Part shown: in pieces, positions 133 to 51,840 of the stretch
How the letters are laid out: the number at the start of each line of letters is the position of its first letter
Numbering within the stretch: position 1 is the first letter of the stretch
DNA from: DATKZS01 sp035527835 [NCBI: bacterium]
GTDB taxonomy: Bacteria; RBG-13-61-14
Direction: 5' to 3'
DNA length: 51,840 nucleotides
Assembly: GCA_035527835.1 (NCBI GenBank)
Contig: DATKZS010000044.1
Location: 1 to 51,840, forward strand
The notes under the pieces: model-generated
The model's database searches: none
Seen by the model: the letters and a program-made list of their open reading frames with translations, nothing else
Told to the model about the DNA's origin: nothing
Position numbers and translations under genes: made by a program

Positions 133-192
133 ACGCCAAGACCGCCAAGAAATTCTTTTATTAATACACATTTTTCTTGGCGGTCTTGGCGT
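133..192. repeat. Tandem-word hairpin, CGCCAAG family
   Basis: The arm at 133-152 contains CGCCAAGA twice and is perfectly complementary over 20 bp to 173-192; a 20-nt AT-rich loop separates them. It lies 43 bp beyond the stop codon of the minus-strand mltD-like gene. A single arm of the same family recurs at 51680-51718. The hairpin may end or stabilise the mltD transcript, but a mobile origin is equally possible. Confidence 0.8.
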
Positions 193-234
193 TTTGGCGG
201 TTATTCTTCGCCTGTTTCATTCCGAAGAGCTGAT

Positions 235-2700
235 TTATTGATAGATGACGAGCTTCTGGCCGGGCCGGACGGAGTCGGAGGAGAGGTTGTTCCACTGTTT
301 GATCTCGGCGACGTGGACGTCGTGGTCGCGGGCGATCTGCCACAGGGACTCGCCTTCCTTGACGGTGTGTACGGTCTTTTTCTTGCCCTTGACCGATGAT
401 GAGGATGAGCTCGAGGAGGAAGTACTCGCCGAGCTTGGGGACGAAGATTTTGATCCGGGCTTGTACTCGGAGCCGGGGCATACGGCGAGCTTCTGGCCGG
501 GCCGGAGCGAGTCGGAGTCGAGTCCGTTCATGGTCTTGATCTGGGCGGTGTAGGCGTCGTAGCGCTTGGCGATGGCCCAGAGCGATTCTCCGGGCTGGAC
601 GGTATGGGTGATCTTACCGGAGCATTTGCCTGACGGCGCCGGGTTGGCCGCGGCCTGGTTTTTGTTGCTTTTCGGGGGAGGAGCCTGGGTCTGATTATTT
701 TCAGGTTGCGCTGGCGCCGAGCCTCTATATTCGGAGCCGGGCTTGACCTGGATTTTCTGTCCGGGGCGGACGGAGTCGGATGAGAGGTCATTCAGGTCCT
801 TGATGTCGGCCACGTGGGCATCGAATTTTTTGGCGATTCCCCACAAAGACTCTCCCTGCTTGACGGTGTAGATGAGCGCGCCCCTGGCGGCGGACACCGG
901 GTCCCGGGCCGGCCGGGAGGCGGTGGAGGAGTTGGCGGCTGATGATCCTGATGACGGATCGGCGCAGGCGAGGTCCGCGGTCGGGGGCAGGGAGGTGGGC
1001 GCGTCCTTGGGCACGACCAGGGTGAGCGTCTGTCCCGGCCGGATCGAGCATTGCGGGTCGAGCTTGTTCCTGGTAATGATGTCCTGGCTGTGGATGCCGT
1101 AGTAGCGGGCGATGAAATAGCAGCGGTCGCCTTCGCGCACGGTGTATTTGACGGTGCGGGTGGGGCCGGTGATCTTGGTGACGGCGGTATTGTGAGCGGT
1201 CTTGGGCGGCTTTTTGGTGGAGCCGCAGATCCGGAGGGTGTCGCCGTAAAAGATCGCGGTCGAGCTCTTGAGGCCGTTGCATTTTTTGAGGTCGGCGGTG
1301 GAGACGCCGTAGTTCTCGGCGATTTCGGAGAGGGTCTCGCCGACGGCGATGGTGTGGACCACGCGCTTGCCTTTTGTGGAATAGTGACCGCGCCCGGTGC
1401 TCTTCGAGCCCCGGCCGCCGGAATCATAGTCATACTCACGGGAGGGCTTGAGGCGGGGGTTGAAGATCGCGTCCCTGGGCGCGGGCACGGTGATGACCTG
1501 TCCCTCCCGGAGGCCGGCGCTCACGGCGAGGTTGTTCATGGAGGCCAGCATGGTGGAGCTGGTCTGATAGCCGGCGGCGATGGAGCGGATGGACTGGCCC
1601 TTTTCCACCTTGTGCTTCCTGAAGGTCACCTTGTCCTCGGCCCGGATCAGGGCGTACTCGGTGCGGAAGCGGCTGACGGCGCCTGTCGGGATGTTGACGT
1701 TGTATCTCTTGCCGGGGGGCGTGCAGAACTGGAGCAGCTCGGGGTTGAGGCGCTGGATTTCGGAGGAGGTGGCCCCGGCGAGCCGGGCGATTACCCTGAG
1801 GTCGAGGGGCTCGTTCACGGTGACGGTGTTGTACTGGAGGGGCGGGAGGATTTCGAGGTTATAGAATCCGTAGCGCTCGGGGTTTTTGGCGATGATGGCG
1901 GCGGCGATCATCTGGGGCAGGTAGTTGCGGGTCTCGAGCTTCAGGGCCTTCTGCTCGCACAGGCACCAATAGTCGGTGCAGCCGGTATGGCGGAGCTCCT
2001 TGTCAATCTTGGCCTCGCCGGCGTTGTAGGATGCCGCGGCCAGGTGCCAGTCGCCGCCGAAAAAGTCGTGGAGGTAGGTAAGATAATCGAGGGCGGCGCG
2101 GGTGCTCTTGATCGGATCGTAGCGCTCGTCCACCCAGAAATTGATGTCGAGCCCGAACTTCTTGCCGGTGGAGCGGATGAACTGCCACAGTCCGCCGGCG
2201 CCGGCATAGCTGTTGATGGTGGGGTTGAAATTGCTCTCGATCCAGCACAGGTAAAACAGCTCTTCCGGCATGCCCCGTTTCTTGAGCTCGGTATTGATCA
2301 TGTCCTCATACAGGCCCGAGCGGATCATGGCCCGCTTAAAGCCCCCGCGGCTGGACCCGGTGAAAAAAGCGATGTAGGCCGCAACGTATTCGTTGATCTG
2401 AAGGGGAAAATCGCCCAGGGACTCGATCTCCTCGGGGGCGATGTAAGTTGAGGGGGCGGAGAGCTTCTTGATCACCTCCGTCAGCGGCAGGGTCTTGTCG
2501 TACACGTGGATCTGGTCATCGGGTACGGGGAACTGATAGACGTGGTCCCATCCGTTGTCCTGGTCCTCGTCCGTGTCCGGCTGGGCCCAGGCGCGCGGTC
2601 CGGGCACGACGATCAGGGCCAAGAGCAGGCCCAGGCAGGCGCGCCACGCCCCGGGCAAAAGCTTGGTCACGGCCCGCTGTGCAATATTTCCTATCTTCAT
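235..2700 (-). CDS. mltD: MltD-like membrane-bound lytic transglycosylase with six LysM domains
   Basis: This is a periplasmic murein hydrolase that would cleave the MurNAc-GlcNAc bond of peptidoglycan and form 1,6-anhydro ends. An N-terminal hydrophobic signal ends near AWAQ (residues 37-40). The SLT domain covers about 140-275, with the catalytic Glu predicted at E155 in IESNFNP and the typical AGGLWQF and AASYNAGE motifs. Six LysM domains follow at about 362-408, 447-494, 517-564, 609-653, 697-743 and 776-820, joined by Ser/Pro/Lys-rich linkers including a long serine run near 752-769. At 821 aa it is much longer than E. coli MltD (about 450 aa, two LysM), mainly through extra LysM modules. 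The start follows an AGAGGGGA ribosome site. It is transcribed alone, divergent from the sugar dehydrogenase. Confidence 0.93.
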   Translation of the reverse strand: MKIGNIAQRAVTKLLPGAWRACLGLLLALIVVPGPRAWAQPDTDEDQDNGWDHVYQFPVPDDQIHVYDKTLPLTEVIKKLSAPSTYIAPEEIESLGDFPLQINEYVAAYIAFFTGSSRGGFKRAMIRSGLYEDMINTELKKRGMPEELFYLCWIESNFNPTINSYAGAGGLWQFIRSTGKKFGLDINFWVDERYDPIKSTRAALDYLTYLHDFFGGDWHLAAASYNAGEAKIDKELRHTGCTDYWCLCEQKALKLETRNYLPQMIAAAIIAKNPERYGFYNLEILPPLQYNTVTVNEPLDLRVIARLAGATSSEIQRLNPELLQFCTPPGKRYNVNIPTGAVSRFRTEYALIRAEDKVTFRKHKVEKGQSIRSIAAGYQTSSTMLASMNNLAVSAGLREGQVITVPAPRDAIFNPRLKPSREYDYDSGGRGSKSTGRGHYSTKGKRVVHTIAVGETLSEIAENYGVSTADLKKCNGLKSSTAIFYGDTLRICGSTKKPPKTAHNTAVTKITGPTRTVKYTVREGDRCYFIARYYGIHSQDIITRNKLDPQCSIRPGQTLTLVVPKDAPTSLPPTADLACADPSSGSSAANSSTASRPARDPVSAARGALIYTVKQGESLWGIAKKFDAHVADIKDLNDLSSDSVRPGQKIQVKPGSEYRGSAPAQPENNQTQAPPPKSNKNQAAANPAPSGKCSGKITHTVQPGESLWAIAKRYDAYTAQIKTMNGLDSDSLRPGQKLAVCPGSEYKPGSKSSSPSSASTSSSSSSSSSVKGKKKTVHTVKEGESLWQIARDHDVHVAEIKQWNNLSSDSVRPGQKLVIYQ

Positions 2701-3097
2701 TCCCCTCTAATTCGGAATCGCAAAGCCATTGCCATGTGAGCACGGTTCTACTCCGACCTCGGGCCCTTGCATCTCATAATTATTATTGCGCTTATTGTCG
2801 TGCCGGGCAGCTTGTTTATAGATGCTCGTTTAGCTTCTCCGGTTCCACTGCTCATGGCCGCGCCTTACCAGGAAGCGGACTTACCAGGCCAATCATTGAA
2901 AGATTAACCGATTTCCCGGGATTAGTCAAAGATATTTCCATCCCCCTAAAATAAAACGATATTATGGCGCCGGCCGGTCACGGGCGGGGCCTTGGCCCCC
3001 TCCTTTAATTTGCTTCCACCACCTTTATTTGTTACCTTATTGCGGTGTTCGTGAAAATTTTTGAGTTAAATTCAGCGACAATGGAGAGAATACGCGG
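2701..3097. other. Divergent intergenic region, no gene seen
   Basis: This 397-bp gap separates the divergent mltD-like and nucleotide-sugar dehydrogenase genes and must hold both promoters. It is more AT-rich than the genes. A direct repeat TTACCAGG occurs at about 2867 and 2881. I see no open reading frame with a ribosome site, no RNA gene and no confident promoter hexamers. Confidence 0.5.
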
Positions 3098-4783
3098 ATG
3101 AAAAAAGACAAGGGCGGGAACAAGGAAGTTAAAGGCCAGGAACACTCGATGAGCCCTGACGGCCGGAGGTTCGCGCTGCCTCGGGAGGACGACTACGCGG
3201 CGGAGCGGGAGCGGCTGGACAGCTTTGTGCTGGAGAAGCGGCGCGAGGGTTATGAGATCGTGGTGGTGGTGGGCCTGGGCTTCGTGGGCGCGGTGATGGC
3301 GGCGGTGATCGCGGACAGCGTGGACAAAAACACGGGGATGCCGGGCAAGTTCGTGATCGGGATGCAGCGGCCCAGCACCCGGTCCTACTGGAAGACCCCG
3401 CTCATCAACCTGGGCGAGTCCCCGATCAAGGCGGAGGACCCCGAGGTTGAAGAGCTGATCCGGCGCACGGTGCTGGAGAAAAAGACCATGATCGCGACGT
3501 ATTCGAACGACGCGCTCAAGTTCGCGGACGTGATCGTGGTGGACGTGCAATGCGATTACATCAAGGAGGACCTGGGAAAGCTGCGCTCCGGCCGCGTGGC
3601 CATGGAGGCCCTCGAATCCTCGATGCGCACCATCGCGGAGAACATGCGGCCGGAGGCCCTGGTCCTGATCGAGACCACCGTGGCCCCCGGGACCACCGAG
3701 CAGGTCGCGCTGCCCATCATGAAAAAGGCGTTCGCCGAGCGGGGCCTCAAGACCGAGCCCCTGCTCGCCCACTCCTATGAGCGGGTGATGCCCGGCCGCC
3801 ACTACGTGAAGAGCATCCGCGATTTCTGGCGGGTCTGCTCCGGGGTGGACGAGGTCAGCAAGCGCCGGGTGAAGAAGTTCCTCTCCGAGGTCCTGAACGT
3901 CGAGGACTTCCCGCTCACCGTCTTGGACCGGCCCATCGAGAGCGAGACCGCCAAGATCGTGGAGAACAGCTTCCGGGCCTCCATCCTGGCCTTCATGGAC
4001 GAGTGGACGCGCTTCGCCGAGCGTCACGGCGTGGACATCGCCAAGGTGATCGCGGCCATCAAGGTCCGGCCCACGCACTCGAACCTGATGCTGCCGGGCC
4101 CGGGCATCGGCGGCTACTGCCTGCCCAAGGACGGCGGGCTCGGACTGTGGGCGCACAAGAACATCCTGAAGGACAGCGAGGACATCTTCAAGATCACGCC
4201 GCTGGCCATTGACATCAACGACACCCGCGGGCTGCACGCCGCGGACATGATCGCGGACGCGGTCAAGGCGATGGGCAAGGACATCAAGGGCGCCAAGGTG
4301 CTGGTGGCGGGCGCGAGCTACCGCGAGGACGTGGGCGACACGCGCTACAGCGGCTCCGAGGTGGTGGCGCGGCGGCTCGCGCACCTGGGGGCCAAGGTTT
4401 ACGCCCACGACCCGTACGTGGACCACTGGTGGGAGTTCGAGAACCAGGACACCTACCCCTACCCCGGCCACTCCCTGGCCCGCTTCTTCGAGAACCAGGA
4501 AGGGCTCAAGGACCTCAAGGTCCAGAACGACCTTCCTTCAGCCCTCGAAAAAATGGACGCGGTCTTCTTTGCCGTGCGCCACGAGCCTTACCTCAAGCTC
4601 CAGCCGGAAGACGTGGTCAAATGGGCCGGAGGGCCCCTCGCCGTGATTGACGGCTTCGCCATCCTCGCCGACGACGACATCCGGCGCTTCCTGGAAATGG
4701 GCTGCGAGGTCGCGGGACTCGGCCGCGGACATATCGGAAGGATCAAGCAGGAGATAAAGCTCAAGGGCAAGAAACGGTCGTGA
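3098..4783 (+). CDS. UDP-glucose/GDP-mannose dehydrogenase family nucleotide-sugar dehydrogenase
   Basis: A cytoplasmic NAD-dependent enzyme of the family that oxidises the C6 hydroxyl of a nucleotide sugar to a uronate, for example UDP-glucose to UDP-glucuronate. The N-terminal Rossmann motif is VGLGFVG (about 57-63). The central dimerisation domain contains the motif GGYCLPKD, with the predicted thioester Cys at C341. The C-terminal UDP-binding domain starts near 398 with KVLVAGASYREDVGDTR, where other members read GxxxKxxxxDxR. At 561 aa it is about 120 aa longer than usual, with a charged 45-residue N-terminal extension and extra sequence around 75-115 and 440-475. The exact substrate cannot be read from sequence. 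A precursor for capsule or exopolysaccharide is likely. No glycosyltransferases are adjacent. Confidence 0.88.
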   Translation: MKKDKGGNKEVKGQEHSMSPDGRRFALPREDDYAAERERLDSFVLEKRREGYEIVVVVGLGFVGAVMAAVIADSVDKNTGMPGKFVIGMQRPSTRSYWKTPLINLGESPIKAEDPEVEELIRRTVLEKKTMIATYSNDALKFADVIVVDVQCDYIKEDLGKLRSGRVAMEALESSMRTIAENMRPEALVLIETTVAPGTTEQVALPIMKKAFAERGLKTEPLLAHSYERVMPGRHYVKSIRDFWRVCSGVDEVSKRRVKKFLSEVLNVEDFPLTVLDRPIESETAKIVENSFRASILAFMDEWTRFAERHGVDIAKVIAAIKVRPTHSNLMLPGPGIGGYCLPKDGGLGLWAHKNILKDSEDIFKITPLAIDINDTRGLHAADMIADAVKAMGKDIKGAKVLVAGASYREDVGDTRYSGSEVVARRLAHLGAKVYAHDPYVDHWWEFENQDTYPYPGHSLARFFENQEGLKDLKVQNDLPSALEKMDAVFFAVRHEPYLKLQPEDVVKWAGGPLAVIDGFAILADDDIRRFLEMGCEVAGLGRGHIGRIKQEIKLKGKKRS

Positions 4784-4817
4784 CACTTTCTTCTAACCCG
4801 GGAAAGGAGATCCCGCC

Positions 4818-5801
4818 ATGAAAAAGACGCTGGCTTGTCTCGTACTCGTCGCAATGATCGCGCCGCTGGCGGCGTGGGCGCAGGAGATAGATTTTAAGCC
4901 GCTGTCCCTCGCCGCGGAGAATGACCGGATCGCCAAGCTCGGCTTCGCGCCCACCGGACCCGGCAATGCGGCGGACCTGTACATCCCTTATCTGAAGGGT
5001 GAGGCCAAGATCACCCAGGAGCCATGGTTCTCGCACCTTTCCCTGCTCATGCTCAACGACCCCAAGCCCGGTGACGCGGAAAAAATCCAAAAAGCTCTGG
5101 CCGCCAGCGCCGACGATCTCAAAATTATCATGGAAGCCTCCTCCCGCCGGGACTGCACCATCTGGGGGCCTTATTGGAAAGTGGACCAGACCAAGGCCTA
5201 TTTCGAGCAGGACACTCCGAAATACATCAACCTGCGCCAATTAGGAGTATTGTTCATCGCCAAGGGTTATGAGCTTGCCAAAGCCGGCGACGCCAAGGGA
5301 GCGGCTGAGCAATACACCACCGTCCTGCGCATGGGAATACACCTTTCGCAAGACCCAACCGCGATCGGCAACGCGGTGGGCCTGGACATGAGAATGGCAG
5401 GCGCGAACCGCATGGCAAAGCTGATGAAAGACACCAATGATCCTTCGGCCGCCGACTGGGACGATTACATGAAGTCCTGTGAGGACATCAAAGCCGCTTG
5501 GAAAGCCTTCTATTGCCCCACGGGATTCGTGAGCTCGTGGGGAGAGGAGAAGGTCGAGTCCTTCGTGCGCGACAAGGACATGCCGTTCACGGCGCGCTTC
5601 GACTGCCTGGCTTGGAACCATTACTGCCTCCAGAGCAAGGTGGCATATCTCAAGTGCTATGCCATGGGCGTCCCGGGCTGGGTAAAAAAACTCGAGGCCG
5701 AAATCTCCCAGGAGAGCGATACGGCCAAACAGTTGGTGGACCAGCTCAACGCCCATCCGGGGTCCATCAAATGGATCGGAGAGGTGGAGGAAAACTACTA
5801 G
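4818..5801 (+). CDS. Secreted protein of unknown function, helical and TPR-like
   Basis: A 327-aa protein with a clear Sec signal peptide (MKK start, hydrophobic core, cleavage near AWA-Q at 20-21). The ribosome site GGAGA precedes the start. The rest is helix-rich and contains one TPR-like stretch, GDAKGAAEQYTTVLRMG, at about 157-173. I recognise no enzyme motif. It lies 34 bp after the sugar dehydrogenase and 39 bp before the first sulfatase, so it may share their transcript. A periplasmic adaptor or structural role is possible; nothing in the sequence decides. Confidence 0.8.
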   Translation: MKKTLACLVLVAMIAPLAAWAQEIDFKPLSLAAENDRIAKLGFAPTGPGNAADLYIPYLKGEAKITQEPWFSHLSLLMLNDPKPGDAEKIQKALAASADDLKIIMEASSRRDCTIWGPYWKVDQTKAYFEQDTPKYINLRQLGVLFIAKGYELAKAGDAKGAAEQYTTVLRMGIHLSQDPTAIGNAVGLDMRMAGANRMAKLMKDTNDPSAADWDDYMKSCEDIKAAWKAFYCPTGFVSSWGEEKVESFVRDKDMPFTARFDCLAWNHYCLQSKVAYLKCYAMGVPGWVKKLEAEISQESDTAKQLVDQLNAHPGSIKWIGEVEENY

Positions 5802-5840
5802 GCACGAACTCCGCCTCAGCAGCGCGGCAGATATGGAACC

Positions 5841-7205
5841 ATGAAGACCCGTCGCGAATTCCTTAAGACCTCCGCCGCCCTGGCCGTCGCTGGAGCGGCA
5901 ACCAGGGCGTGCACCAAACCTCGCCCAAAATCCGACCGGCCTAACGTCCTTCTGATCCTCGACGACGAGGAGCGCTACCACCTCCACCTGCCCAGGCTCA
6001 CGCTCCCCAACCGCCAGCGCCTCCGCCAAAGCGCCGTGGTCTTCAGCCACGCCTGTTGCACCTATCCTCTTTGCTCTCCGAGCCGCTCCACGATCTTCAC
6101 CGGGCTTTGGCCCCACCAGGCCGGCATCATCACCAACGTGGACAAGTACGCAGAAAACCCGTCGCTCGACCCCGCCATCCCCAACCTCGGCAGCGTCTTC
6201 TCGCGCGCCGGCTACGAGACCGCCTACTTCGGCAAGTGGCACCTCTCCCGAAACGGCGACGCCTACGGCACGCCCCGCGCCTATGGCTTCAAGTACCCGT
6301 TCGTCTCGAACCAGGAAGTGGGGTGGCGCACCGACCATAACGTGTCCGTGCGCGCCGCGGCCTGGCTCAAAAAGAACGCGGGCCAAACGCCCTGGCTCAT
6401 GGCCTATTGCCCGGTCAACCCGCACGACATCCTGGTCCCGGAGCTGGCCGGGCAATACGGCGGCCTGGAAAAATACGCGGCCGCCCTGCCCCCGAACTTC
6501 GCGGCCGAGCCCGCGCCCGGCATCAAGACCCTGGAGCAATACGGCGAGACCAGGATGATTAAAGACCTGGCGCCCAAGGACCGCGCCGGCTGGCTGGACT
6601 ACATCCGCTATTACTGCCGCCTGATCGAGGACGTGGACCAGCAATTGGGCCGCGTGCTCGACGCGCTGGAAGCGTCGGGCCAATGGGACAACACCATCGT
6701 GGTCTTCACCTCCGACCACGGCGAGATGGCCGGATCCCATGGCCTGGCCTATAAGGGTCACACCATGTACGAGGAAAACATCCGCGTGCCCCTCTGGATC
6801 TCCGACCCGCGCCATGTGAACGCCCCGCGCGCCCACGACGGGCTCGTCTCCCACCTCGACCTCGTCCCCACCCTCTCGGCCCTCGCCGGAGTCCCCTGGC
6901 CCGCGCCGCTCACCGGCCTCGACCTCTCACCCATCATCGAGTCCGGAAAGGACGTGGCCCGCGACCGCGTTTTTTGCGAAGGCTCCGTCCGGGTGGTATA
7001 TGGTTTCCGGGGCATCCGCACCGAACCATGGAAATACTGGCATTACAACACCGGCGAGGAGCTGCTCTTCAACCTCAAGGACGATCCCCTGGAGCTGAAA
7101 AACCTCGCCTCCGACCCAGGCTCAGCAGTCACCCTGGCCGGACTCCGGGAACAAGTCCGCCAATGGCGGCGCGACACCAACGACCCGATGAAGGAGTTCA
7201 TGTAA
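5841..7205 (+). CDS. Tat-exported Cys-type sulfatase 1
   Basis: A family S1 (arylsulfatase-like) enzyme of 454 aa that would hydrolyse sulfate esters outside the cytoplasm. The N-terminus carries a twin-arginine signal (TRREFLK) ending in ATRAC, which may be a lipobox. The core shows metal-binding Asp residues in LILDDEE (about 38-44), the formylglycine signature CSPSR with the modified Cys predicted at C78, GKWHLS, and TSDHGEM. It is clearly paralogous to the third sulfatase: both share NPHDI, GHTMYEEN and a QWRRDTNDP-type C-terminus. No formylglycine-generating enzyme or anSME is in the window. The substrate is not readable; the neighbouring fucose isomerase hints at a sulfated fucan. Confidence 0.92.
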   Translation: MKTRREFLKTSAALAVAGAATRACTKPRPKSDRPNVLLILDDEERYHLHLPRLTLPNRQRLRQSAVVFSHACCTYPLCSPSRSTIFTGLWPHQAGIITNVDKYAENPSLDPAIPNLGSVFSRAGYETAYFGKWHLSRNGDAYGTPRAYGFKYPFVSNQEVGWRTDHNVSVRAAAWLKKNAGQTPWLMAYCPVNPHDILVPELAGQYGGLEKYAAALPPNFAAEPAPGIKTLEQYGETRMIKDLAPKDRAGWLDYIRYYCRLIEDVDQQLGRVLDALEASGQWDNTIVVFTSDHGEMAGSHGLAYKGHTMYEENIRVPLWISDPRHVNAPRAHDGLVSHLDLVPTLSALAGVPWPAPLTGLDLSPIIESGKDVARDRVFCEGSVRVVYGFRGIRTEPWKYWHYNTGEELLFNLKDDPLELKNLASDPGSAVTLAGLREQVRQWRRDTNDPMKEFM

Positions 7206-7226
7206 CGCCTTTACAAGAAGGTCTTA

Positions 7227-7320
7227 TTTTGCCGCAGATGAACGCAGATGAACACAGATAAGAAAAGAAAAAAATTATTTAATTCTTATCCGCGTTCATC
7301 TGCGTTCATCTGCGGCAAAA
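7227..7320. repeat. Tandem-word hairpin, GCAGATGAAC family, copy 1
   Basis: The left arm (7227-7263) holds GCAGATGAAC-type words in tandem and pairs almost perfectly over about 37 bp with 7283-7320; the loop is A-rich. The right arm ends in AAAA. It fills most of the gap between sulfatases 1 and 2. A related copy is at 15314-15406. Confidence 0.85.
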
Positions 7321-7366
7321 AATCTACTATTGTATTTTCACGACCCCGACGAACGAGGGACATGAA

Positions 7367-9193
7367 ATGAAAAAAAATCGTCGCGCTTTCCTGGCTCAAT
7401 CGGCCGCGGCCGCGGCGCTCGCCGCCATGCCCGGCGCCGCCTGCGCCGCCGCGCCCATCTCCGGAGCCGACCGCCCCAACATCCTGTGGCTGGTGAGCGA
7501 GGACAACAGCCCCTGGCTCGGATGTTACGGCGACCCGCTCGCCGACACCCCGAACCTCGACCGCATGGCCCGCGAAGGCGTGCGCTTTACCAGCGCCTTT
7601 GCCAACGCCCCCGTGTGCGCGCCCGCCCGCTTCACCATCCACACCGGCGTGTACGCCTCTTCCGCCGGGACCCAGCACATGCGGAGCTGCAACCCCATCC
7701 CGCCCGGAATCAGGTTCTTCACCCAGTACCTCCGCGAGGCCGGCTACTACTGCGTGAACGGACAAAAGACCGATTACAACACCACGGGCACGCCGCCCGA
7801 GGCCTGGGACTCGCGCCGCTTCACCGCGTCACTCCGCGGCCTCAAGCGCCATCAGCCGTTTTTCCGCTTCATCAACTACATGACCACCCACGAGTCGTCC
7901 CTGCACAAGGTTAAGCCCGTGACGCATGATCCGGCCGCCATGCGTCTCGCGCCCTATCACCCCGACACCCCCGAGATCCGACACGACTACGCCCAGTACT
8001 ACGATCAGATCACCAGGCTCGACGGCCAGATCGGCGAGGCCCTGGCCGAGCTCGAGCGGCAGGGACTCGCCGACGACACCATCGTCTTCTACTTCTCCGA
8101 CCATGGCGGCGTGCTCCCGCGATCCAAGCGCTTCCTCTACGACTCCGGAATGCGCGTGCCCATGATCGCGCGCTTCCCGGAAAAATACCGCCACCTCGCG
8201 CCATCCGCGCCCGGTTCCACTTTTGACCAGCCCGTGAGCTTCGTGGACCTCGCGCCCACCATGATGAGCATCGCCGGCGTGCCCGTGCCCGACTACATGC
8301 AGGGCCGCGCCTTCCTGGGACCGCAGGCCGCGCCCGCGCCGCAGTACGTGTACGGCTTCAGGGGCCGCATGGACGATCGCTACGACATGAGCCGCGCCGT
8401 CCGCGACCTCAACTTCAAGTACATCCGCAACTACCACCCGTACCTGCCCTGGGGCCGCCACCTCGACTACCTCTGGCGCATGCCCGCCACCCGCTCGTGG
8501 GAAGAAATGTACCAGGCCGGAAAACTGAACGCCGTGCAAAAACGCTGGTTCGAGCCCAAGCCCGCCGAAGAGCTCTACGACCTCGCGGCCGACCCCTACG
8601 AGATCAACAACCTCGCTGGAGACCCCGCCTACCTGGAAACCATCGTGCGAATGCGCGACGCCAACCGCAGGTTCCTCCTCGATCACCACGACGCCGGATT
8701 CCTGCAGGAGGCCGAGATGGTCGCGCGCGCTCAAGGCTCCACACCCTACGACCTGGTCCGCGACCCCATACGCTACGACCTGCCCCGCGTCATGGCCGCC
8801 GCCGAGATCGCGGGCGATCCCGGACCCGGCGCCGCGGCCAAGCTTATTGAGCTCCTCAAAGACCATGACAGCGCCGTGCGCTACTGGGGCGCGGTCGGAT
8901 GTCTCGCGCTCGGGCAAAAGTCCGCGGACACGATGCCGCTCCTCACTCAAGCGCTCGACGATGACTCCGCGAGCGTCAGCGTGGCCGCGGCAGCCGCCAT
9001 GTTCAAGCTGGGCCGGCCCGGCCCGGCCCTGGCAGCGTTCAAGAAGGCGCTCCAGGACGACAACATGTATGCCGGCTTCTACGCCTCCGACATGATGGAC
9101 TTTATCGGCGCCGACGATCCGTCCCTGAACCGCCTTAAAAACAAGGCCAAGGCCCGCGTGCGAAAAGCGACGAACCTGAATGCGCTAAAATAA
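7367..9193 (+). CDS. Tat-exported Cys-type sulfatase 2 with C-terminal HEAT-like repeats
   Basis: A 608-aa S1-family sulfatase. The signal has the twin-arginine motif NRRAFL and an Ala-rich core. Motifs are WLVSEDNSPWLGCYG (metal site), CAPAR with the formylglycine Cys predicted at C84, and YFSDHGG. This lineage (SEDNSPW, HMRS) differs from its neighbours and resembles the heparan N-sulfatase-like branch of the S1 family. From about residue 480 to 590 the chain becomes HEAT/PBS-lyase-like, with units such as LLKDHDSAVRYWGAVGCLALG and ALDDDSASVSVAAAAAMFKLG, probably a protein- or glycan-contact module. The start follows a weak site; M7367 gives the Tat motif at the correct distance. Confidence 0.92.
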   Translation: MKKNRRAFLAQSAAAAALAAMPGAACAAAPISGADRPNILWLVSEDNSPWLGCYGDPLADTPNLDRMAREGVRFTSAFANAPVCAPARFTIHTGVYASSAGTQHMRSCNPIPPGIRFFTQYLREAGYYCVNGQKTDYNTTGTPPEAWDSRRFTASLRGLKRHQPFFRFINYMTTHESSLHKVKPVTHDPAAMRLAPYHPDTPEIRHDYAQYYDQITRLDGQIGEALAELERQGLADDTIVFYFSDHGGVLPRSKRFLYDSGMRVPMIARFPEKYRHLAPSAPGSTFDQPVSFVDLAPTMMSIAGVPVPDYMQGRAFLGPQAAPAPQYVYGFRGRMDDRYDMSRAVRDLNFKYIRNYHPYLPWGRHLDYLWRMPATRSWEEMYQAGKLNAVQKRWFEPKPAEELYDLAADPYEINNLAGDPAYLETIVRMRDANRRFLLDHHDAGFLQEAEMVARAQGSTPYDLVRDPIRYDLPRVMAAAEIAGDPGPGAAAKLIELLKDHDSAVRYWGAVGCLALGQKSADTMPLLTQALDDDSASVSVAAAAAMFKLGRPGPALAAFKKALQDDNMYAGFYASDMMDFIGADDPSLNRLKNKAKARVRKATNLNALK

Positions 9194-9220
9194 TTTAGGC
9201 CGCTCTGAAATCCGAGATCT

Positions 9221-9297
9221 GGTAGGACAGGCATTCCTGCCTGTCCACTGCTTCCTGCGGCAATCAAGGGCGGACAGACAAGAATGTCTGTCCTACC
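9221..9297. repeat. Nested palindromic repeat (GGACAGGCA / GGACAGACA)
   Basis: Each arm is itself a palindrome: GGACAGGCA-TTCC-TGCCTGTCC at 9225-9246 and GGACAGACA-AGAA-TGTCTGTCC at 9272-9293. The two arms also pair with each other, bounded by GGTAG and CTACC, giving a possible cruciform. It lies in the gap between sulfatases 2 and 3. Similar palindromes are scattered in many environmental bacterial genomes. Confidence 0.8.
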
Positions 9298-9346
9298 TCG
9301 CATATTGAAAGCAAACGGCTTCGCTTGGGATCGGAGGGGAGAAAAC

Positions 9347-15313: not shown

Positions 15314-15406
15314 AAAAAACGCAGATGAACGCAGATAGACGCAGATATTTAGAATATTTTCTCCTGGAAATTATCTGTGTTCATCTGCGTTCATCTGCGG
15401 TTTTTT
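15314..15406. repeat. Tandem-word hairpin, GCAGATGAAC family, copy 2
   Basis: The left arm 15314-15347 carries three GCAGAT words and pairs with 15372-15406; the base is A6/T6, so the hairpin looks terminator-like on both strands. It lies between the thiolase stop and the first acyl-CoA dehydrogenase. An upstream in-frame ATG in the right arm would give a false N-terminal extension to that gene. Confidence 0.83.
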
Positions 15407-16624: not shown

Positions 16625-17919
16625 AGGCGCTCACGCATCTGGACGTGGCCAAGCGGCACCTTCCCATGATCGGCCGGCTCATGGTCAGGAAGCGCTACGG
16701 CGATTTCTGGGAGGAAGAGACGCGGACGCTGCCGTGGCCGTTCGGGGGGCTTAGGCGGAAGTACAAGGCATTCGCGGACGAGTACATCCGGCCGCGCGCG
16801 CTGGGGGTTGACCAGGACGTGAGCGCGCTGGACAAGGAGTGGTTGTTCACCGAGTACGCGCGGCGCGGCTGGGCGTCGGAGCTTTTGCCGTGGCCGATCG
16901 GGGGCATGAAGGTCGCGGCGCTCCGGAGCTATGGGCTGCACGCGGCGTTGAAGATGGAGGAGTTATGCGCGGCGTGCGGGGGCATCGCGCTGATGCTGGG
17001 GGCGCACGACCTGGGGATGGCGCCGCTCTTGATGTCTGGTGACTTGAAGGTACTGTGGGACTGGACCATCCCGATTTACAAGCGGCTGAACAAGGGGGAG
17101 CGTGCGGTCTGGGCGTTCGCGATCACGGAGCCGGGCGCGGGCTCGGACGTTGAGGAGACGGAGGGCGCGCTCAAGGCCCGGGTGGTGACGCGGGCGAAGA
17201 GGGCCGAGGGCGGATACGTGCTCAACGGGCGCAAGGTTTTCATCTCGGACGGGGGCATCGCGGATTACGTTACGGTGTTCGCGTGCCTGGGCGACGAGGG
17301 GGTGGAGAGCTGGACCTGCTTCGTGGTGGAGAGCGGGATGAAGGGGTTTACGAAGGGGCGGCGCGAGAAGAAGATGGGCCAGAAGGCGGGCGACGCCACG
17401 GAACTGATTTTCGAGGACGTGTTCGTGCCGGACCGGAACCGGGTCGGCCCGGAGCGGTCAGGCTGGGCGTTGAACCGAAACGTGCTGAATTTTTCGCGGC
17501 CGGTGGTGGGGGCGATCGCGCTGGGCATAGCGCGGGGCGCGTTCGAGCATTGCCTGGAGTTTTGCCAGAATACGCGGCAGGGACCCCGGCGGCTGGTGGA
17601 GTACCAGGAGGTGCAGCTCGCGCTGGCGGAAATGATGATCCGGCTGATGGCGGGCCGGTCGCTGATCTGGCACGCGGGCCGGTTCATGCCTCCGCTGCCG
17701 CTGACCTCGGCCGCGGCCAAGGTGTTCTGCTCGGACACGGCGGTTACGGTCTGCGCGAGCGCCATGGACATCATGGGCGACCACGCTTACATGCACGGGA
17801 ACTACGTGGAGAAGGCGCTCCGTGACGCGCGGCTGACGCAGATTTACGAGGGCACGAACCAGATCAACCGGCTGGGGATCATCGAGGACATGTGGGAGCA
17901 TGAATTAAGAGAGGTTTGA
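16621..17919 (+). CDS. Acyl-CoA dehydrogenase
   Basis: A 432-aa flavoprotein that would introduce the alpha-beta double bond into an acyl-CoA and pass electrons to ETF. It shows ITEPGAGSD (FAD/substrate loop), the central beta domain (VLNGRKVFISDGG), and IYEGTNQINR, with the catalytic Glu predicted at E410. The N-terminus is about 40 aa longer than the family average and includes an unusual Trp/Arg-rich stretch. It is translationally coupled (ATGA) to the preceding Glu-less homologue, suggesting an alpha2beta2 complex. ETF is not encoded nearby. Confidence 0.92.
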   Translation: MKALTHLDVAKRHLPMIGRLMVRKRYGDFWEEETRTLPWPFGGLRRKYKAFADEYIRPRALGVDQDVSALDKEWLFTEYARRGWASELLPWPIGGMKVAALRSYGLHAALKMEELCAACGGIALMLGAHDLGMAPLLMSGDLKVLWDWTIPIYKRLNKGERAVWAFAITEPGAGSDVEETEGALKARVVTRAKRAEGGYVLNGRKVFISDGGIADYVTVFACLGDEGVESWTCFVVESGMKGFTKGRREKKMGQKAGDATELIFEDVFVPDRNRVGPERSGWALNRNVLNFSRPVVGAIALGIARGAFEHCLEFCQNTRQGPRRLVEYQEVQLALAEMMIRLMAGRSLIWHAGRFMPPLPLTSAAAKVFCSDTAVTVCASAMDIMGDHAYMHGNYVEKALRDARLTQIYEGTNQINRLGIIEDMWEHELREV

Positions 17920-18003
17920 GGTTTGGGGTTTGAGGTTTGAGGGAAGAGGCCGGCCGGCTGGCGCCTATTCCTCAAGCCTCACGCCTTTATTCGCCTCACG
18001 CCT
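17911..18003. repeat. Tandem-word sequence, CCTCAAGCCTCACGCC family
   Basis: GGTTTGAGG-type words at 17920-17942 face CCTCAAGCCTCACGCC words at 17970-18003, forming an imperfect inverted repeat between two convergent genes. A single arm of the same family occurs at about 42962-43014. Confidence 0.6.
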
Positions 18004-18006
18004 TCT

Positions 18007-27133: not shown

Positions 27134-27202
27134 CAGTGCCTCTCTTAGCATATCTATCGGATGAGCGGGAGGAGAATGGATGCTATGTGCGTCACAGATC
27201 GA

Positions 27203-27294
27203 GTAGAGCGTAGAGCGAAGGGCGAAGGGCGTAAATCAAATCACCGAGAAAGCAGCGGTCTTTCACGCCCTACGCCCTGCGCTCTACGCTCTAC
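27203..27294. repeat. Tandem-word hairpin, GTAGAGC/AAGGGCG family
   Basis: The left arm 27203-27232 (TAGAGCG twice, then AAGGGCG-type words) pairs over 30 bp with 27265-27294 with two mismatches. It lies between rph and rdgB within a likely operon. Arms are composed of two different words, unlike most of the other families. Confidence 0.8.
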
Positions 27295-27358
27295 CCGCCT
27301 CCGGTCCCCATCCAATGTTATTTCTCAGATCCACTCTGGAAGGTGAAGAACCTTATTA

Positions 27359-32279: not shown

Positions 32280-32551
32280 GGTTCTATGCATTCGAGAGTG
32301 GATCATCCTCCGGCGGGGTTTAAGAATTTACACGGATGAACACGGATGAGACGGATGACACGGATCGGAGAATGGCCGGAAATTTCTTGATCCGTGAGAT
32401 CAGTTTCCATCCGTGGGCTTGGAAAAGATCGCTGATCTCGATGACTTGAAGGGGCACGTTTTAACTTGACGCCGACGGATGGAATACGGATCGCACGGAT
32501 ATTCTGATCCGATCCGTGAAATCCGTTCGAATCCGTTCCATCCGTGTAAAA
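32280..32551. mobile_element. Truncated MITE, copy 1
   Basis: This sequence matches the first 272 bp of the complete MITE at 50531-50854, beginning with the same terminal GGTTCTATGCA and including the internal ACGGATGA tandem-word hairpin. The last 50 bp or so and the right terminal repeat are missing. It adjoins the broken lipoprotein gene exactly at its left end. Confidence 0.85.
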
Positions 32552-35034: not shown

Positions 35035-35103
35035 AACAAGGATACTCAGGATGTTCAGGATTAAAAAACAGAAATCATCCCGGGAATCCCGAACATCCTT
35101 GTT
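35035..35103. repeat. Tandem-word hairpin, AACAAGGAT family, copy 1
   Basis: AACAAGGATACTCAGGATG on the left pairs with the complementary words at 35074-35103. It lies between convergent genes and ends 11 bp before the stop codon of the activase gene. An outer CTCATAACC at about 35010 matches the outer end of the complete copy at 42605-42763. Confidence 0.8.
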
Positions 35104-36049: not shown

Positions 36050-36149
36050 AAGAGAAGAATTATTAACAAGGATATACAGGATGTTCAGGATAAAAAAGAC
36101 CGGAAATTATCCTGGTAATCCTGTACATCCCTGTTGAAATTCTTTTCTT
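36050..36149. repeat. Tandem-word hairpin, AACAAGGAT family, copy 2
   Basis: The left arm 36050-36092 and right arm 36107-36149 pair along about 43 bp, with outer AAGA and TCTT ends and the inner CAGGATAA. The right arm abuts the stop codon of the cyclic-nucleotide-binding gene at 36150. Confidence 0.8.
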
Positions 36150-42604: not shown

Positions 42605-42763
42605 TTAGAGGCGGTTTCATAACCCCGCCAAGAATTTTTTAACAAGGATATTCAGGATGTTCAGGATTAAGAAAACCAGAAATCATCCTGGAAATCCTGA
42701 ATATCCTTGTTAATAATCTTTTCATCTGAGATGGTTGTCCTGGTTATGAAACCAGTTCTAAGA
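42605..42763. mobile_element. Small palindromic element, AACAAGGAT family, complete copy 3
   Basis: A 159-bp near-palindrome. The outer ends TTAGAGGCGGTTTCATAACC and the complement of 42744-42763 match at 17 of 20 positions, including a perfect GGTTTCATAACC. Inside is the AACAAGGATATTCAGGATG hairpin shared with copies at 35035 and 36050. No coding capacity. It looks like a non-autonomous mobile or BIME-type element. Confidence 0.7.
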
Positions 42764-42818: not shown

Positions 42819-42908
42819 TTTTGACAGGATTAACGGGATTTACCGGATTGCCCGAATAAGTTGATTGATTGCTCTTTCATCCTGTAAATCCTGTTAATCC
42901 TGTCAAAA
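42819..42908. repeat. Tandem-word hairpin, GACAGGATTAAC family
   Basis: TTGACAGGAT, then GGGATTTACC and similar words (from 42821), pair with the words at 42877-42906 that end TCCTGTCAA. It is separated from the previous element by about 55 bp. A single arm recurs at 51621-51651, there too preceded by TTCATGAAAA. Confidence 0.82.
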
Positions 42909-42961
42909 GACATTTTCCGGAAGGATAAAGAAGATCTATCGCGGCCCCCGCTCCGGCCCCC

Positions 42962-43014
42962 AGGCCTCAAGCCTCACGCCCCAAGCCTCACGCCTCAAGC
43001 CCCATGCCCCCACG
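42962..43014. repeat. CCTCAAGCCTCACGCC word array (single arm)
   Basis: Five or so degenerate 8-10 nt words of type CCTCAAGC/CTCACGCC in tandem, directly before the stop codon of the minus-strand gene at 43022. No pairing arm is nearby. Confidence 0.6.
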
Positions 43015-44544: not shown

Positions 44545-44622
44545 GGTTTGTGGTTTGTAGTTTGTGGTTTGTGGTTAAAAGACATCCGCGGCTTCGAACC
44601 ACAAACCATAAACCATAAACCC
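44545..44622. repeat. Tandem-word hairpin, GGTTTGTGG family, copy 1
   Basis: GGTTTGTGG-type words (44545-44575) face AACCACAAACC-type words (44598-44622). The 20-nt loop starting AAAAGACATCCGCGGC is identical to that of copy 2, so the two are recent duplicates. It sits directly upstream of the unknown protein's start codon. Confidence 0.85.
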
Positions 44623-44705
44623 CCAACCCCTCTCTTCCCCGTTCCGGATGCCATTATGCTCCGAGTATAACAAATGAGCAACAAGAATCAATAAGGTTCT
44701 CAAAC

Positions 44706-44791
44706 GGGTTTGTGGTTTGCAGTTTGTGGTTTGTGGTTAAAAGACATCCGCGGCTTCGAACCACAAACCACAAACTGCAAACCACAAACCC
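44706..44791. repeat. Tandem-word hairpin, GGTTTGTGG family, copy 2
   Basis: A perfect 33-bp inverted repeat (44706-44738 against 44759-44791) around the same 20-nt loop as copy 1, in the same orientation. It ends 4 bp before the stop codon of the GNAT-like gene. Confidence 0.9.
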
Positions 44792-45917: not shown

Positions 45918-45971
45918 CGGGGTTGCTGTTTCGGCGCGGATCAAGAGAGAGCTTCTTGCAAGAGTCCAGGG

Positions 45972-46056
45972 CTTGGCGTGGGAGCGCCCTTCTGGGCGCG
46001 ATCCGTTTTTCCAGCCCCGCGAAGAATCGCGCCCAGAAGGGCGCTCCCACGCCAAG
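45972..46056. repeat. Long perfect inverted repeat with GGAGCGCCCTTCTGGGCGC arms
   Basis: A perfect 31-bp inverted repeat (45972-46002 and 46026-46056) with 23 nt between. Each arm contains a smaller palindrome, GCGCCCTTCTGGGCGC. Similar GCGCCCTTCTGGGCGC modules are scattered in many proteobacterial genomes as REP-like sequences. Confidence 0.85.
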
Positions 46057-46106
46057 TCCCATGCCGGCGTCGGCCTTTTGCAAGCAGCTTGAGAGTTTCC
46101 CTTTCC

Positions 46107-47072: not shown

Positions 47073-47106
47073 GGCCAACCCTCCTTCTTGGCAAGTTTTT
47101 GTTTCG

Positions 47107-47134
47107 CACAGAGGCACAGAGTTCACAGAGAAAA
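47107..47134. repeat. CACAGAG word array (single arm)
   Basis: CACAGAGG, CACAGAGTT and CACAGAG in tandem upstream of the GMP-synthase-like gene. No clear pairing arm; the AT-rich sequence after it (47135-47162) is unlike its surroundings. Confidence 0.55.
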
Positions 47135-47202
47135 ATATTTTTTGAATTTATATTTAATTTCTCCGCGCCGCCGGGCGAAAAAGTCCTTATAAGTCCTTAT
47201 CC

Positions 47203-50481: not shown

Positions 50482-50522
50482 CAGAAAAAATGCAGGCCTT
50501 TGCTTGCGGCGACAACTTCATG

Positions 50523-50530
50523 TTTTTTAT
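50523..50530. repeat. 8-bp target-site duplication, left
   Basis: TTTTTTAT, identical to 50855-50862 on the other side of the MITE. Confidence 0.85.
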
Positions 50531-50854
50531 GGTTCTGTGCACTCGAGAGTGGATCATCCTCCGGCGGGCTTTAAGAATTTACACGGATGAAAACGGATGA
50601 AACGGATGACACGGATCAGAAAAATGGCCGGAAATTTCTTGATCCGCGAGATCAGTTCCCATCCGGAGGCTGGGAAAAGACCGCTGATCCCGATGACTTG
50701 AAGGGGTGCGATTTAACTTGACGCCGACGGATGGAATACGGATCGCACGGATATCCTGGTCCGATCCGTGAAATCCGTTCAAATCCGTTCCATCCGTGTA
50801 AAAGTCTTGGCTGATCATGCTGCAAGTATCATCCACTCTAAAATGCACAGAGCC
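50531..50854. mobile_element. Complete MITE, 324 bp, with terminal inverted repeats and target duplication
   Basis: The ends GGTTCTGTGCACTCGAG... (50531 on) and the complement of ...GTGCACAGAGCC-type sequence ending at 50854 match at 22 of 28 positions. The element is flanked by a perfect 8-bp direct repeat, TTTTTTAT. Ends starting GG and 8-bp duplications are typical of the ISL3 family, so an ISL3-type transposase is the probable mobiliser; this is inference from size and ends. There is no coding capacity. The interior holds ACGGATGA tandem words in two arms (about 50579-50618 and 50729-50804). Confidence 0.88.
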
Positions 50855-50862
50855 TTTTTTAT
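50855..50862. repeat. 8-bp target-site duplication, right
   Basis: TTTTTTAT, identical to 50523-50530. Confidence 0.85.
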
Positions 50863-51064
50863 AAAGTAATACTGACGGGCAAACTTAGGGACTCTTGGCC
50901 AGGTCTTTAAAAAAGGGCAATATCTTGCGGCAACCTTTTACCGTTTTTTCTCCTTGATTGGATCAGTCAAGATAAATCCTGTTTTTTTGCTGTTGGATGC
51001 CGCCGGGCCGTATGCTAATCTGTCCTGGTCGGTTCGGTAGGACGATTGGCAAGGAGGTGGCGCC
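50863..51064. other. Upstream region of the UspA-like gene
   Basis: About 200 bp, AT-rich on the left, with no gene visible. An imperfect inverted repeat CTTGATTGGATCAGTCAAG lies at about 50953. The promoter at 50993-51021 is listed separately. Confidence 0.45.
50993..51021 (+). promoter_or_regulatory. Probable sigma70 promoter of the UspA-like gene
   Basis: TTGGAT (50993-50998), 17 bp, TAATCT (51016-51021). The start codon is 44 bp further on with AAGGAGGTG before it. Confidence 0.55.
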
Positions 51065-51550
51065 ATGGATCAACTGAAAATCGAACACATTCTCACCCCC
51101 GTGGATTTCCTCGACATGACCGGGGAGGTCGTCAACTACGCGACCAACCTGGCGCGCATCTTCGGCGCCAAGATGACCATCCTCCACGTCGTGCACGTGC
51201 CTCCGCTGGCCGAGGCCAGTACCTGGCTCGAACCCGTGATCACGCCGAGCGTCGAGCAGGACATGAGGCTGCATCTGAAAGCCGCCGCCGAGGCCAAGCT
51301 AAAGGAACTGGCCGGGCAGTGCAAGGACGCGGGCGTGGAAACCGGTTTCGCGGTCCGGGAGGGCGTGCCCTTCGCCGAGATCATCGCGCTGGCGGAAGAG
51401 CAAAAAGCCGACCTTATCGTCATGGGCAGCCAGGGCCGGCGCGGGCTGTCGCACTTCCTGGTCGGCTCCGTGGCCGAGCGCGTCGTCCGCCGCGCCCACT
51501 GCAACGTGCTGTGCATCAAGCCGAAGCCGGAGGATCAAGGGGAGAAGTAA
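51065..51550 (+). CDS. Universal stress protein, UspA family
   Basis: A 161-aa single-domain Usp with the Rossmann-like alpha/beta fold. It has an early HILTPVDFLD and the ATP-binding pattern G-2x-G-9x-G-S/T: GSQGRRG at 121-127 and G134-S135. It is therefore of the ATP-binding (UspFG/MJ0577-like) type. Members respond to starvation, redox or energy stress and often associate with metabolic enzymes. The ribosome site is close to consensus. It stands alone. Confidence 0.94.
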   Translation: MDQLKIEHILTPVDFLDMTGEVVNYATNLARIFGAKMTILHVVHVPPLAEASTWLEPVITPSVEQDMRLHLKAAAEAKLKELAGQCKDAGVETGFAVREGVPFAEIIALAEEQKADLIVMGSQGRRGLSHFLVGSVAERVVRRAHCNVLCIKPKPEDQGEK

Positions 51551-51840
51551 GGGACTTTTTATTTCGCACAGTCATTCATGCCGCGAGGCGGCACCCTAAG
51601 TTCATGAAAAGAAGATTGTCGGACAGGATTAACAGGATTTACCGGATTAACACACTCTTGTCCAAAATAGGCCGGAAGAAAACCGCCAAGACGCCAAGAA
51701 CGCCAAGGATCGCCAAGTAAATCATGATGTTTCTTTGCGGCCCGGCAAAGAACAGCTCCGGAGCGTTGGCCCCAACCGGCTTGGCGAACCGGCCGACGGG
51801 AGCGCCAAGCAAAAAACATTCGCACCCCAGCCCTCTTAAA
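51551..51840. other. Gene-free right end with two tandem-word arms
   Basis: No gene is supported. GACAGGATTAAC words occur at 51621-51651 and CGCCAAG words at 51680-51718, each as a single arm. A frame of 88 codons on the minus strand reads through both arrays and has no ribosome site, so I do not call it. Confidence 0.6.

What the first reader, a model, noticed from the sequence alone, without database searches (positions are those of the whole stretch)
133..51718. Eleven or so families of tandem-word hairpins fill the gaps between genes
Seen directly: in many gaps a 7-11 nt word is repeated 2-4 times with variation and, in most families, mirrored to form a hairpin with 20-43 bp arms. Families and positions: CGCCAAG (133, 51680), GCAGATGAAC (7227, 15314), GGACAGGCA (9221), CCTCAAGCC (17911, 42962), GTAGAGCG (27203), ACGGATGA (32280 and 50531, inside a MITE), AACAAGGAT (35035, 36050, 42605), GACAGGATT (42819, 51621), GGTTTGTGG (44545, 44706), GGAGCGCCC (45972), CACAGAG (47107). 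The words differ, yet the architecture is the same, and word length is often near one DNA helical turn. Similar arrays are known in environmental genomes, but I know of no mechanism that explains convergent architecture with different words.
Basis: partly seen in the sequence, partly recalled or inferred. Interest (0 to 1): 0.66.

Follow-up and report, generated by a model that had tools for sequence, protein, structure and literature searches.

The report
Hairpin ends of tiny jumping elements
The hairpins between these genes look like stripped-down copies of two kinds of very small bacterial jumping elements whose ends are short repeated words that go with the one small protein the full elements carry, which would tie a long-unexplained class of bacterial DNA repeats to specific proteins.

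Summary
The arrays are real: 11 long inverted repeats in the window, against 1 in ten Markov resamplings together; 8 of the 11 are built of tandem words. No genome is held for the window, so I followed the words elsewhere.

Words spaced 8-10 nt frame genes for GxxExxY (PF13366), a PD-(D/E)XK nuclease of unknown role; 7-nt words frame genes for the four-helix protein of 23S rRNA intervening sequences (IVP, PF05635). Inverted repeats flank 69 of 87 GxxExxY and 56 of 73 IVP genes; shifted and random boxes give none; Y1-transposase genes have terminal repeats without words. Word class follows the protein tree. Arms covary with the protein; DNA just inside and outside them does not.

Elements are present or absent at matching sites: one plasmid IVP insertion with a probable 8-bp target duplication, four ORF-less hairpins and one IVP element between sister genomes, GxxExxY in 2 of 12 comparable Bacteroidales gaps.

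Best reading: the window hairpins are ORF-less copies of such elements; 9221 and 45972 are REP-like instead. That the proteins do the moving is inferred.

The parts
133..192 (.). CGCCAAG hairpin, 20-nt identical arms; 8-10-nt (GxxExxY-type) class
7227..7320 (.). GCAGATGAAC hairpin, 38-nt arms, words 10 nt apart; GxxExxY-type class
15314..15405 (.). GCAGATGAAC hairpin, second copy; GxxExxY-type class
17911..17981 (.). GAGGTTT / CCTCAAG 7-nt array, weakly mirrored; IVP-type class
27200..27297 (.). GTAGAGC / GTAGGGC 7-nt hairpin, 36-nt arms; IVP-type class
32327..32550 (.). ACGGAT arrays inside a longer element, copy 1; GxxExxY-type word
35035..35103 (.). AACAAGGAT..CAGGAT hairpin, degraded copy; GxxExxY-type class
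36065..36135 (.). AACAAGGAT..CAGGAT hairpin, second copy
42636..42716 (.). AACAAGGAT..CAGGAT hairpin, third copy, 32-nt arms
42819..42908 (.). GACAGGATT hairpin, 30-nt arms, words 9 nt apart; GxxExxY-type class
42958..43010 (.). GCCTCAA/GCCCCAA 7-nt array without a mirrored arm; IVP-type period
44545..44628 (.). GGTTTGT 7-nt hairpin, 32-nt arms; IVP-type class
44706..44791 (.). GGTTTGT 7-nt hairpin, second copy with the same loop, 33-nt identical arms
47102..47180 (.). CACAGAG array, weakly mirrored; GxxExxY-type word
50578..50802 (.). ACGGAT arrays inside a longer element, copy 2; GxxExxY-type word
51621..51652 (.). ACAGGATTA array without a mirrored arm; GxxExxY-type word
51680..51717 (.). 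CGCCAAG array without a mirrored arm; GxxExxY-type word

Best explanation
The tandem-word hairpins are ORF-less (non-autonomous) copies of two classes of very small mobile elements. A full element is about 0.4-0.7 kb: an array of about 3-5 copies of a short word, one small gene, and the same array inverted. Class 1 carries GxxExxY, a PD-(D/E)XK nuclease, with words spaced 8-10 nt. Class 2 carries the 23S rRNA intervening-sequence protein (IVP, an Avd-like four-helix bundle), with 7-nt words. Proposed working: the protein binds the repeated word in the arms, perhaps as the hairpin formed on single-stranded DNA or RNA, and helps to excise and insert the element; ORF-less arms are moved in trans; the number of words changes by whole units; words drift together with the protein, giving one architecture with many words. 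SHOWN in sampled relatives: the anatomy, the link of spacing to gene class, word-protein covariation, insertion polymorphism with and without the ORF (7-nt class) and with the ORF (8-10-nt class), one change by two words, one probable target duplication (7-nt class). INFERRED: that the window's own hairpins arose this way (same words or periods, same position in gaps), that the proteins bind the words, and that they catalyse movement.
For: Inverted repeats flank 69 of 87 GxxExxY and 56 of 73 IVP genes (cross-locus null 46 of 1716 and 30 of 1440; shifted boxes 0 of 78 and 0 of 93; random boxes 0 of 930). Words recur in 42 of 69 and 43 of 56 such arms, in 0 of 15 Y1 arms; spacing 8-10 nt in 87 of 89 and 7 nt in 137 of 160 steps. 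All six 8-10-nt window words occur at GxxExxY genes. 10 of 10 plasmid loci fetched show the arms. Word classes on the GxxExxY tree: 16 changes against 42.4 shuffled, 0 of 200 as low. Arms, but not inner spacers or outer flanks, covary with the protein. Filled and empty plasmid sites with a probable 8-bp duplication and a 14-nt (two-word) difference. 5 of 12 simple insertions between sister genomes are heptamer hairpins, four without ORF, and their three words also frame IVP genes in the same genome. GxxExxY elements in 2 of 12 radA gaps, with different words. Nuclease core kept in 67-68 of 68.
Against: No GxxExxY, IVP or Y1 gene or remnant in the window and no genome to look in. The exact heptamers of the window were not found at an IVP gene. 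18 of 87 and 17 of 73 genes lack arms of score >=35. Exact target duplication not shown for GxxExxY; plasmid sites B and C are imprecise. GxxExxY genes are framed in two opposite word orientations, not explained. Genomes with ACAGGATT arrays all have PF13366 (15 of 15) but so do 36 of 45 without (p 0.095). Word labels were defined after seeing the arms. Covariation could in part be retained common ancestry of the arms. Heptamers in Xanthomonas are reported at conserved places (PMC4692102, passages). Some window arrays are not mirrored.
Confidence: 0.72

Rival explanations
1. Passenger model: the hairpins are mobile, but an unrelated enzyme (a Y1/RAYT transposase or a reverse transcriptase) moves them in trans; GxxExxY and IVP ride inside or regulate.
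For: Y1 genes are common in the same genomes (49 of 60). IVP resembles Avd, a partner of a reverse transcriptase in diversity-generating retroelements. Neither protein is a known transposase.
Against: Y1 genes are framed by other, word-free repeats (0 of 15). One genome with ACAGGATT arrays shows no Y1 match (G057). Words covary with GxxExxY and IVP. I did not search for reverse transcriptases in these genomes.
Confidence: 0.17
2. Transcription terminators or RNA-processing hairpins kept for function, with words arising by local duplication.
For: They lie in gaps, often after genes, and form strong stems.
Against: Present or absent at matching sites; same words in distant lineages and tied to a gene. 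The terminator scan of 1-20000 found 19 sites against 16.4 expected, but its loop limit of 8 excludes most of these stems, so it is no fair test (the second scan failed).
Confidence: 0.05
3. Simple-repeat slippage: short words expand by replication slippage and hairpins form by chance or by strand switching, with no element.
For: Copy number changes by whole words (L339 against L350); heptamer excess has been ascribed to slippage (PMC4679880, passages).
Against: Arms frame a gene of a given family, are inverted, share loops between copies in the window and insert as units.
Confidence: 0.03
4. All are REP/REPIN elements of RAYT transposases.
For: 9221 and 45972 have GTAG-like or GTGGGAG heads and palindromes (the GTAG tag is from PMC3733652, passages; the GTGGGAG type is recalled).
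Against: The tandem-word hairpins lack such heads; Y1 genes are not framed by such words.
Confidence: 0.03

Closest known systems
23S rRNA intervening sequences (IVS) with the S23/IVP gene
   Same: Same protein family inside inverted repeats; described as selfish, and a mobility role for the ORF has been suggested (PMC4990558, passages).
   Different: Here the elements sit in gaps between genes, the arms are tandem 7-nt words, and ORF-less copies abound. The known IVS is in rRNA and is cut out by RNase III; its arms were not compared here.
REPIN / RAYT (REP-associated tyrosine transposase) systems
   Same: Dispersed non-autonomous palindromes plus one dedicated protein gene framed by the same repeats.
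   Different: Unrelated proteins (PD-(D/E)XK nuclease or four-helix bundle, not Y1); ends are tandem words, not one GTAG-tagged palindrome.
MITEs
   Same: Short ORF-less inverted-repeat elements, copies of ORF-bearing ones.
   Different: The ORF-bearing parents found here encode no recognised transposase; ends are word arrays that change by whole words.
Heptamer repeats: TAACTGA of Beggiatoaceae, GGGAATC of Xanthomonas, GGGGA(C/T)T of Nostoc; cyanobacterial STRR (the last recalled)
   Same: 7-nt tandem words, mostly intergenic; inverted pairs reported in Xanthomonas; mobility and a repeat-binding protein were considered for TAACTGA.
   Different: Those papers' passages name no partner gene; the link to IVP is proposed here and was not tested for those exact words.

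Membership tests
GxxExxY elements (class proposed here) | word core spaced 8-10 nt in inverted arrays, same cores as at GxxExxY genes | tested here: met
   window 133, 7227, 15314, 36065, 42636, 42819; unmirrored at 51621 and 51680, weak at 47102
GxxExxY elements (class proposed here) | GxxExxY gene between the arms, or such a gene elsewhere in the genome | tested here: inconclusive
   none in the window; no genome held
IVP / intervening-sequence type elements | inverted arrays of 7-nt words | tested here: met
   window 27200, 44545, 44706; weak at 17911, unmirrored at 42958
IVP / intervening-sequence type elements | IVP gene in the element or genome | tested here: inconclusive
   none in the window; no genome held
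IVP / intervening-sequence type elements | location in 23S rRNA and excision by RNase III (classic IVS) | tested here: not met
   window hairpins are in gaps; Rfam finds no rRNA in the window. So not classic IVS; excision not testable
MITE | presence/absence at orthologous sites with target duplication | tested here: inconclusive
   shown for relatives of the 7-nt class elsewhere, not for the window copies
REP / RAYT | GTAG-type head and single palindrome | tested here: not met
   tandem-word hairpins; only 9221 and 45972 look like it
Intrinsic terminator | GC stem, short loop, T-run | tested here: inconclusive
PD-(D/E)XK nuclease (for GxxExxY) | D...ExK core and fold | tested here: met
   D 68 of 68, E and K 67 of 68; model pLDDT 96.6, Cas4 SSO0001 Z 9.6; Foldseek alone gave no match at E <= 0.001

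The most novel reading that the evidence does not exclude
GxxExxY proteins are word-specific nucleases that mobilise a class of bacterial elements with inverted tandem-word ends, and IVP does the same job for heptamer words. Together they would account for much of the unexplained 7-10-nt tandem-word hairpins of environmental bacteria and would make rRNA intervening sequences one branch of a far larger intergenic family of mobile elements without a classical transposase.
Probability: 0.5. Interest if true: 0.9.

Novelty: new variant of a known kind. Interest (0 to 1): 0.8.

Why it matters
GxxExxY is widespread (51 of 60 genomes), yet in the held library only two papers contain the name, and the one I opened mentions it in passing. 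Heptamer repeats and rRNA intervening sequences have each been described without an agreed origin. Tying the repeats to two small proteins turns a cataloguing puzzle into a testable question of protein-DNA or protein-RNA recognition, with a ready-made series of matched words and proteins across phyla, and gives genome annotators a simple rule for a common kind of intergenic DNA.

Tried and rejected
Transposase or reverse transcriptase in the window: none named among the 30 main ORFs scanned with Pfam (three shorter ORFs were not scanned). Rfam: no match. tRNA: none. Close relatives of the window: none recognised (TRCF 44-57% identical in the best segments, 17 genomes). Six words as text in papers: no hits. 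Lag autocorrelation failed for most GxxExxY arms because the spacing varies (which also stopped with a file-writing error after printing its counts); recurrence of a 5-mer at 6-12 nt was used instead, so that range is imposed. GxxExxY empty site in G016/G092: the region is rearranged. Genus of G031 holds only itself. Plasmid sites B and C: no clean junction. Gemmatirosa GxxExxY locus: no empty relative. Solved structure for GxxExxY by sequence: none at E <= 1. PADLOC hits to Cas4 and to a homing endonuclease are weak (E 0.003-0.008). Terminator scan uninformative. In one search, the first look, two IVP loci with short flanks were dropped.

Choices that could bias: the threshold of 35 was set; word classes were defined after seeing the arms, and 68 of the 74 GxxExxY genes with arm score >=30 could be labelled and entered the tree. 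Of profile hits (104 GxxExxY, 83 IVP, 31 Y1), those under 80% of the profile, exact duplicates and those with under 80 bp of flank were dropped (87, 73, 30 kept). Y1 genes also exceed their cross-locus null only in part (23 of 578 null pairs >=35). Flanks were fetched for part of the genes found: GxxExxY 70 stretches (30, 40), IVP 50, plus 29 and 30 loci from other groups; plasmids 10 of 45 records; empty plasmids of site A 3 of the 6 listed at 87% coverage. L103 and L112 were first fetched by word, but the same genes are in the list. In one search, 21 radA loci were examined and 9 gave no gap.
Full report
OBSERVATION. The window is 51.8 kb, 63% GC, 89% covered by the ORFs I drew. Genes look housekeeping or metabolic (sulfatases, acyl-CoA dehydrogenases, Mfd/TRCF, carbamoyl-phosphate synthase and others); no transposase or reverse transcriptase was named among 30 ORFs scanned. 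An ungapped scan finds 11 inverted repeats of score >=14; ten first-order Markov resamplings gave 0 nine times and 1 once. 8 of the 11 have recurring words in both arms. Some copies share loops: the three AACAAGGAT hairpins align end to end, and the two GGTTTGT hairpins have the same loop, so these are copies, not separate inventions. 9221 and 45972 are single palindromes with GTAG-like or GTGGGAG heads and are set aside as REP-like; 42962, 51621 and 51680 are unmirrored.

THE LEAD. No genome is held for the window, and the best CarB relatives, 75-81% identical, come from many phyla. I searched the word ACAGGATTNACAGGATTNACAGGATT (up to 2 mismatches) in 60 genomes of the phylum of G003, the genome of L003, a Hydrogenedentota MAG: 15 of 60 carry it, up to 22 matches per genome; the reversed control gave none. 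In two loci (L103, L112) facing arrays about 460-530 bp apart enclose a small ORF. The one of L103 (again as L144) is a GxxExxY protein by TIGR04256; that of L112 is in the PF13366 list.

TEST OF THE LEAD. In those 60 genomes PF13366 was found in 51, PF05635 (IVP) over its cut-off in 40, PF01797 (Y1) in 49. In 31 genomes of other groups PF13366 was found in 14 and PF05635 over cut-off in 20. For distinct, nearly full-length genes with flanks, the best local alignment of the left 300 bp to the reverse complement of the right 300 bp scored >=35 in 69 of 87 GxxExxY and 56 of 73 IVP loci. Controls: cross-locus pairs 46 of 1716 and 30 of 1440; boxes shifted by 900 bp 0 of 78 and 0 of 93; random boxes in CarB/TRCF loci 0 of 930. 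Y1 genes have such repeats in 15 of 30, but in none of the 15 does a 5-mer recur three or more times at 6-12 nt, against 42 of 69 GxxExxY and 43 of 56 IVP arms (shuffled arms 1.0%, 0.4% and 2.4%). Spacing separates the classes: GxxExxY 8, 9 or 10 nt in 87 of 89 steps, IVP 7 nt in 137 of 160. The six 8-10-nt word types of the window all occur at GxxExxY genes (for example L281 CGCCAAG, L157 CGCAGAT, L287 ACGGATGAACACGGAT, L189 AACAAGGAT..CAGGAT, L112 GACAGGATT, L129 CACAGAG). The 7-nt window words have the IVP period, but I found no IVP gene with exactly those heptamers. All 10 plasmid loci fetched (7 IVP, 3 GxxExxY; cyanobacteria, Bacteroidota, Gemmatimonadota; 10 of 45 records) show the arms, scores 36-113.

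WORD AND PROTEIN GO TOGETHER. On a tree of 68 GxxExxY proteins the six word classes need 16 changes; shuffled labels need 42.4 on average, 0 of 200 as few (few columns, 25 of 65 inner branches open). Shared 6-mers of arms rise with protein identity (Mantel r 0.42 and 0.32, 0 of 1000 permutations as high). Control for simple co-inheritance: for GxxExxY pairs at 50% identity or more, arms share 0.186 of 6-mers, for more distant pairs 0.064; for IVP 0.116 and 0.025. Inner spacers (0.039/0.036; 0.043/0.038) and outer flanks (0.045/0.045; 0.049/0.045) show almost nothing (r at most 0.09). So the words, not the element's DNA as a whole, are kept with the protein. The simplest reading is recognition of the word by the protein; that is an inference.

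MOBILITY. (A) Plasmids of Trichormus variabilis ATCC 29413 (L339) and Scytonema NIES-4073 (L350) carry an IVP element two genes upstream of a TrbI/VirB10-type gene; plasmids of Aulosira (L347), Fremyella (L348) and Nostoc linckia (L356), 97-98% identical over 87% of the query, lack it. The junctions read GTAATAAA on the left and GTAATTAA on the right; the empty site has one GTAATTAA: a probable 8-bp target duplication with one change. L339 and L350 differ by 14 nt in the left arm, two words. A further plasmid (L349) keeps an array and the start of the ORF only. At site B the empty sites are imprecise and L353 holds an ORF-less heptamer hairpin in the same gap; site C is too diverged. (B) In about 78 kb of synteny between sister genomes G016 and G092, 12 simple insertions were found; five are heptamer hairpins (57550, 67785, 69730, 72414 without ORF; 77792 with IVP) and one is REP-like. 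The three words of the ORF-less ones also frame IVP genes in G016: GTRAGGC at C54:78065 (the element of 77792), GTGAAAN at C54:79177, GCTCATR on C25. (C) Between radA and the next gene, 10 of 12 comparable Bacteroidales gaps are 8-90 bp without GxxExxY; two hold GxxExxY elements with different words (L340 CACAGAG; L395 CGCAGATTT, ORF apparently frame-shifted by eye). An exact GxxExxY duplication could not be read, the nearest empty gap being in another species (radA protein 94% identical, gap DNA not alignable).

PROTEINS. GxxExxY keeps D, E, K and Q of the nuclease core in 67-68 of 68 sequences. The model (pLDDT 96.6) is closest to Cas4 SSO0001 (Z 9.6); archaeal Holliday-junction resolvases are among the rows at Z 6-7, a range that the tool warns may only mean a common fold; Foldseek itself gave no match at E <= 0.001. 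IVP matches Avd of diversity-generating retroelements (E 4e-9) and the solved protein XCC0516 (2gsc).

WHAT DOES NOT FIT. GxxExxY genes are framed in two orientations, words reading towards or away from the gene, sometimes by a whole hairpin on each side; this may point to circular or tandem intermediates but is unexplained. About a fifth of the genes lack strong arms. Genomes with ACAGGATT arrays all have PF13366 (15 of 15), but so do 36 of 45 others (p 0.095). Heptamers of Xanthomonas are reported at conserved places (PMC4692102, passages).

PRINT. Searches for GxxExxY (two papers, one opened, a passing mention), for six words (none), and for IVP or short repeats with mobility showed no listed title or abstract that makes this link; only open-licence papers are held. 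Papers seen as passages: PMC8934634, PMC4990558, PMC3733652, PMC4679880, PMC4692102. The IVS paper recalls an older proposal that the IVS ORF served mobility, and the TAACTGA paper considers a repeat-binding protein as the mobile element; the present data fit both.

VERDICT. The puzzle of one architecture with different words has a good candidate answer: two classes of word-ended mini-elements, each with its own small protein. The step from association to mechanism needs the bench.

Noticed in passing
window 9221-9297 and 45969-46059: Single palindromes with GTAG-like or GTGGGAG heads, probably REP elements; no Y1 gene was detected in the window.
   Followed up: partly
window 32256-32600 and 50500-50870: Two closely similar copies of a longer element of roughly 300 bp that encloses the ACGGAT arrays; by eye the second copy has outer inverted ends around GAGTGGAT.
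   Followed up: partly
window 32706-32744: Perfect 14-nt tandem duplication TTGCCCCCGAAGTC upstream of the iron-sulphur protein gene at 32869.
   Followed up: no
L338 and L341 (cyanobacterial plasmids): An IVP gene with heptamer arms lies between cas6 and cas4 of CRISPR loci in two different plasmids, L338 annotated as type I-D.
   Followed up: no
L188 (G050:C223): Two nearly identical GxxExxY genes in direct tandem about 640 bp apart, each with CACCAAG arms.
   Followed up: no
G016:C54 near 79,000 and G092:C8 near 57,400: The same gap holds different IVP-like ORFs with different words (GTGAAAN; GTTCAAC-type) in two sister genomes (read by eye for the second).
   Followed up: partly
L343 (Gemmatirosa kalamazoonensis plasmid 1): The GxxExxY locus matches at least 26 places in its own 1.1-Mb plasmid (limit of pieces reached), so its arrays are highly repeated there.
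   Followed up: no
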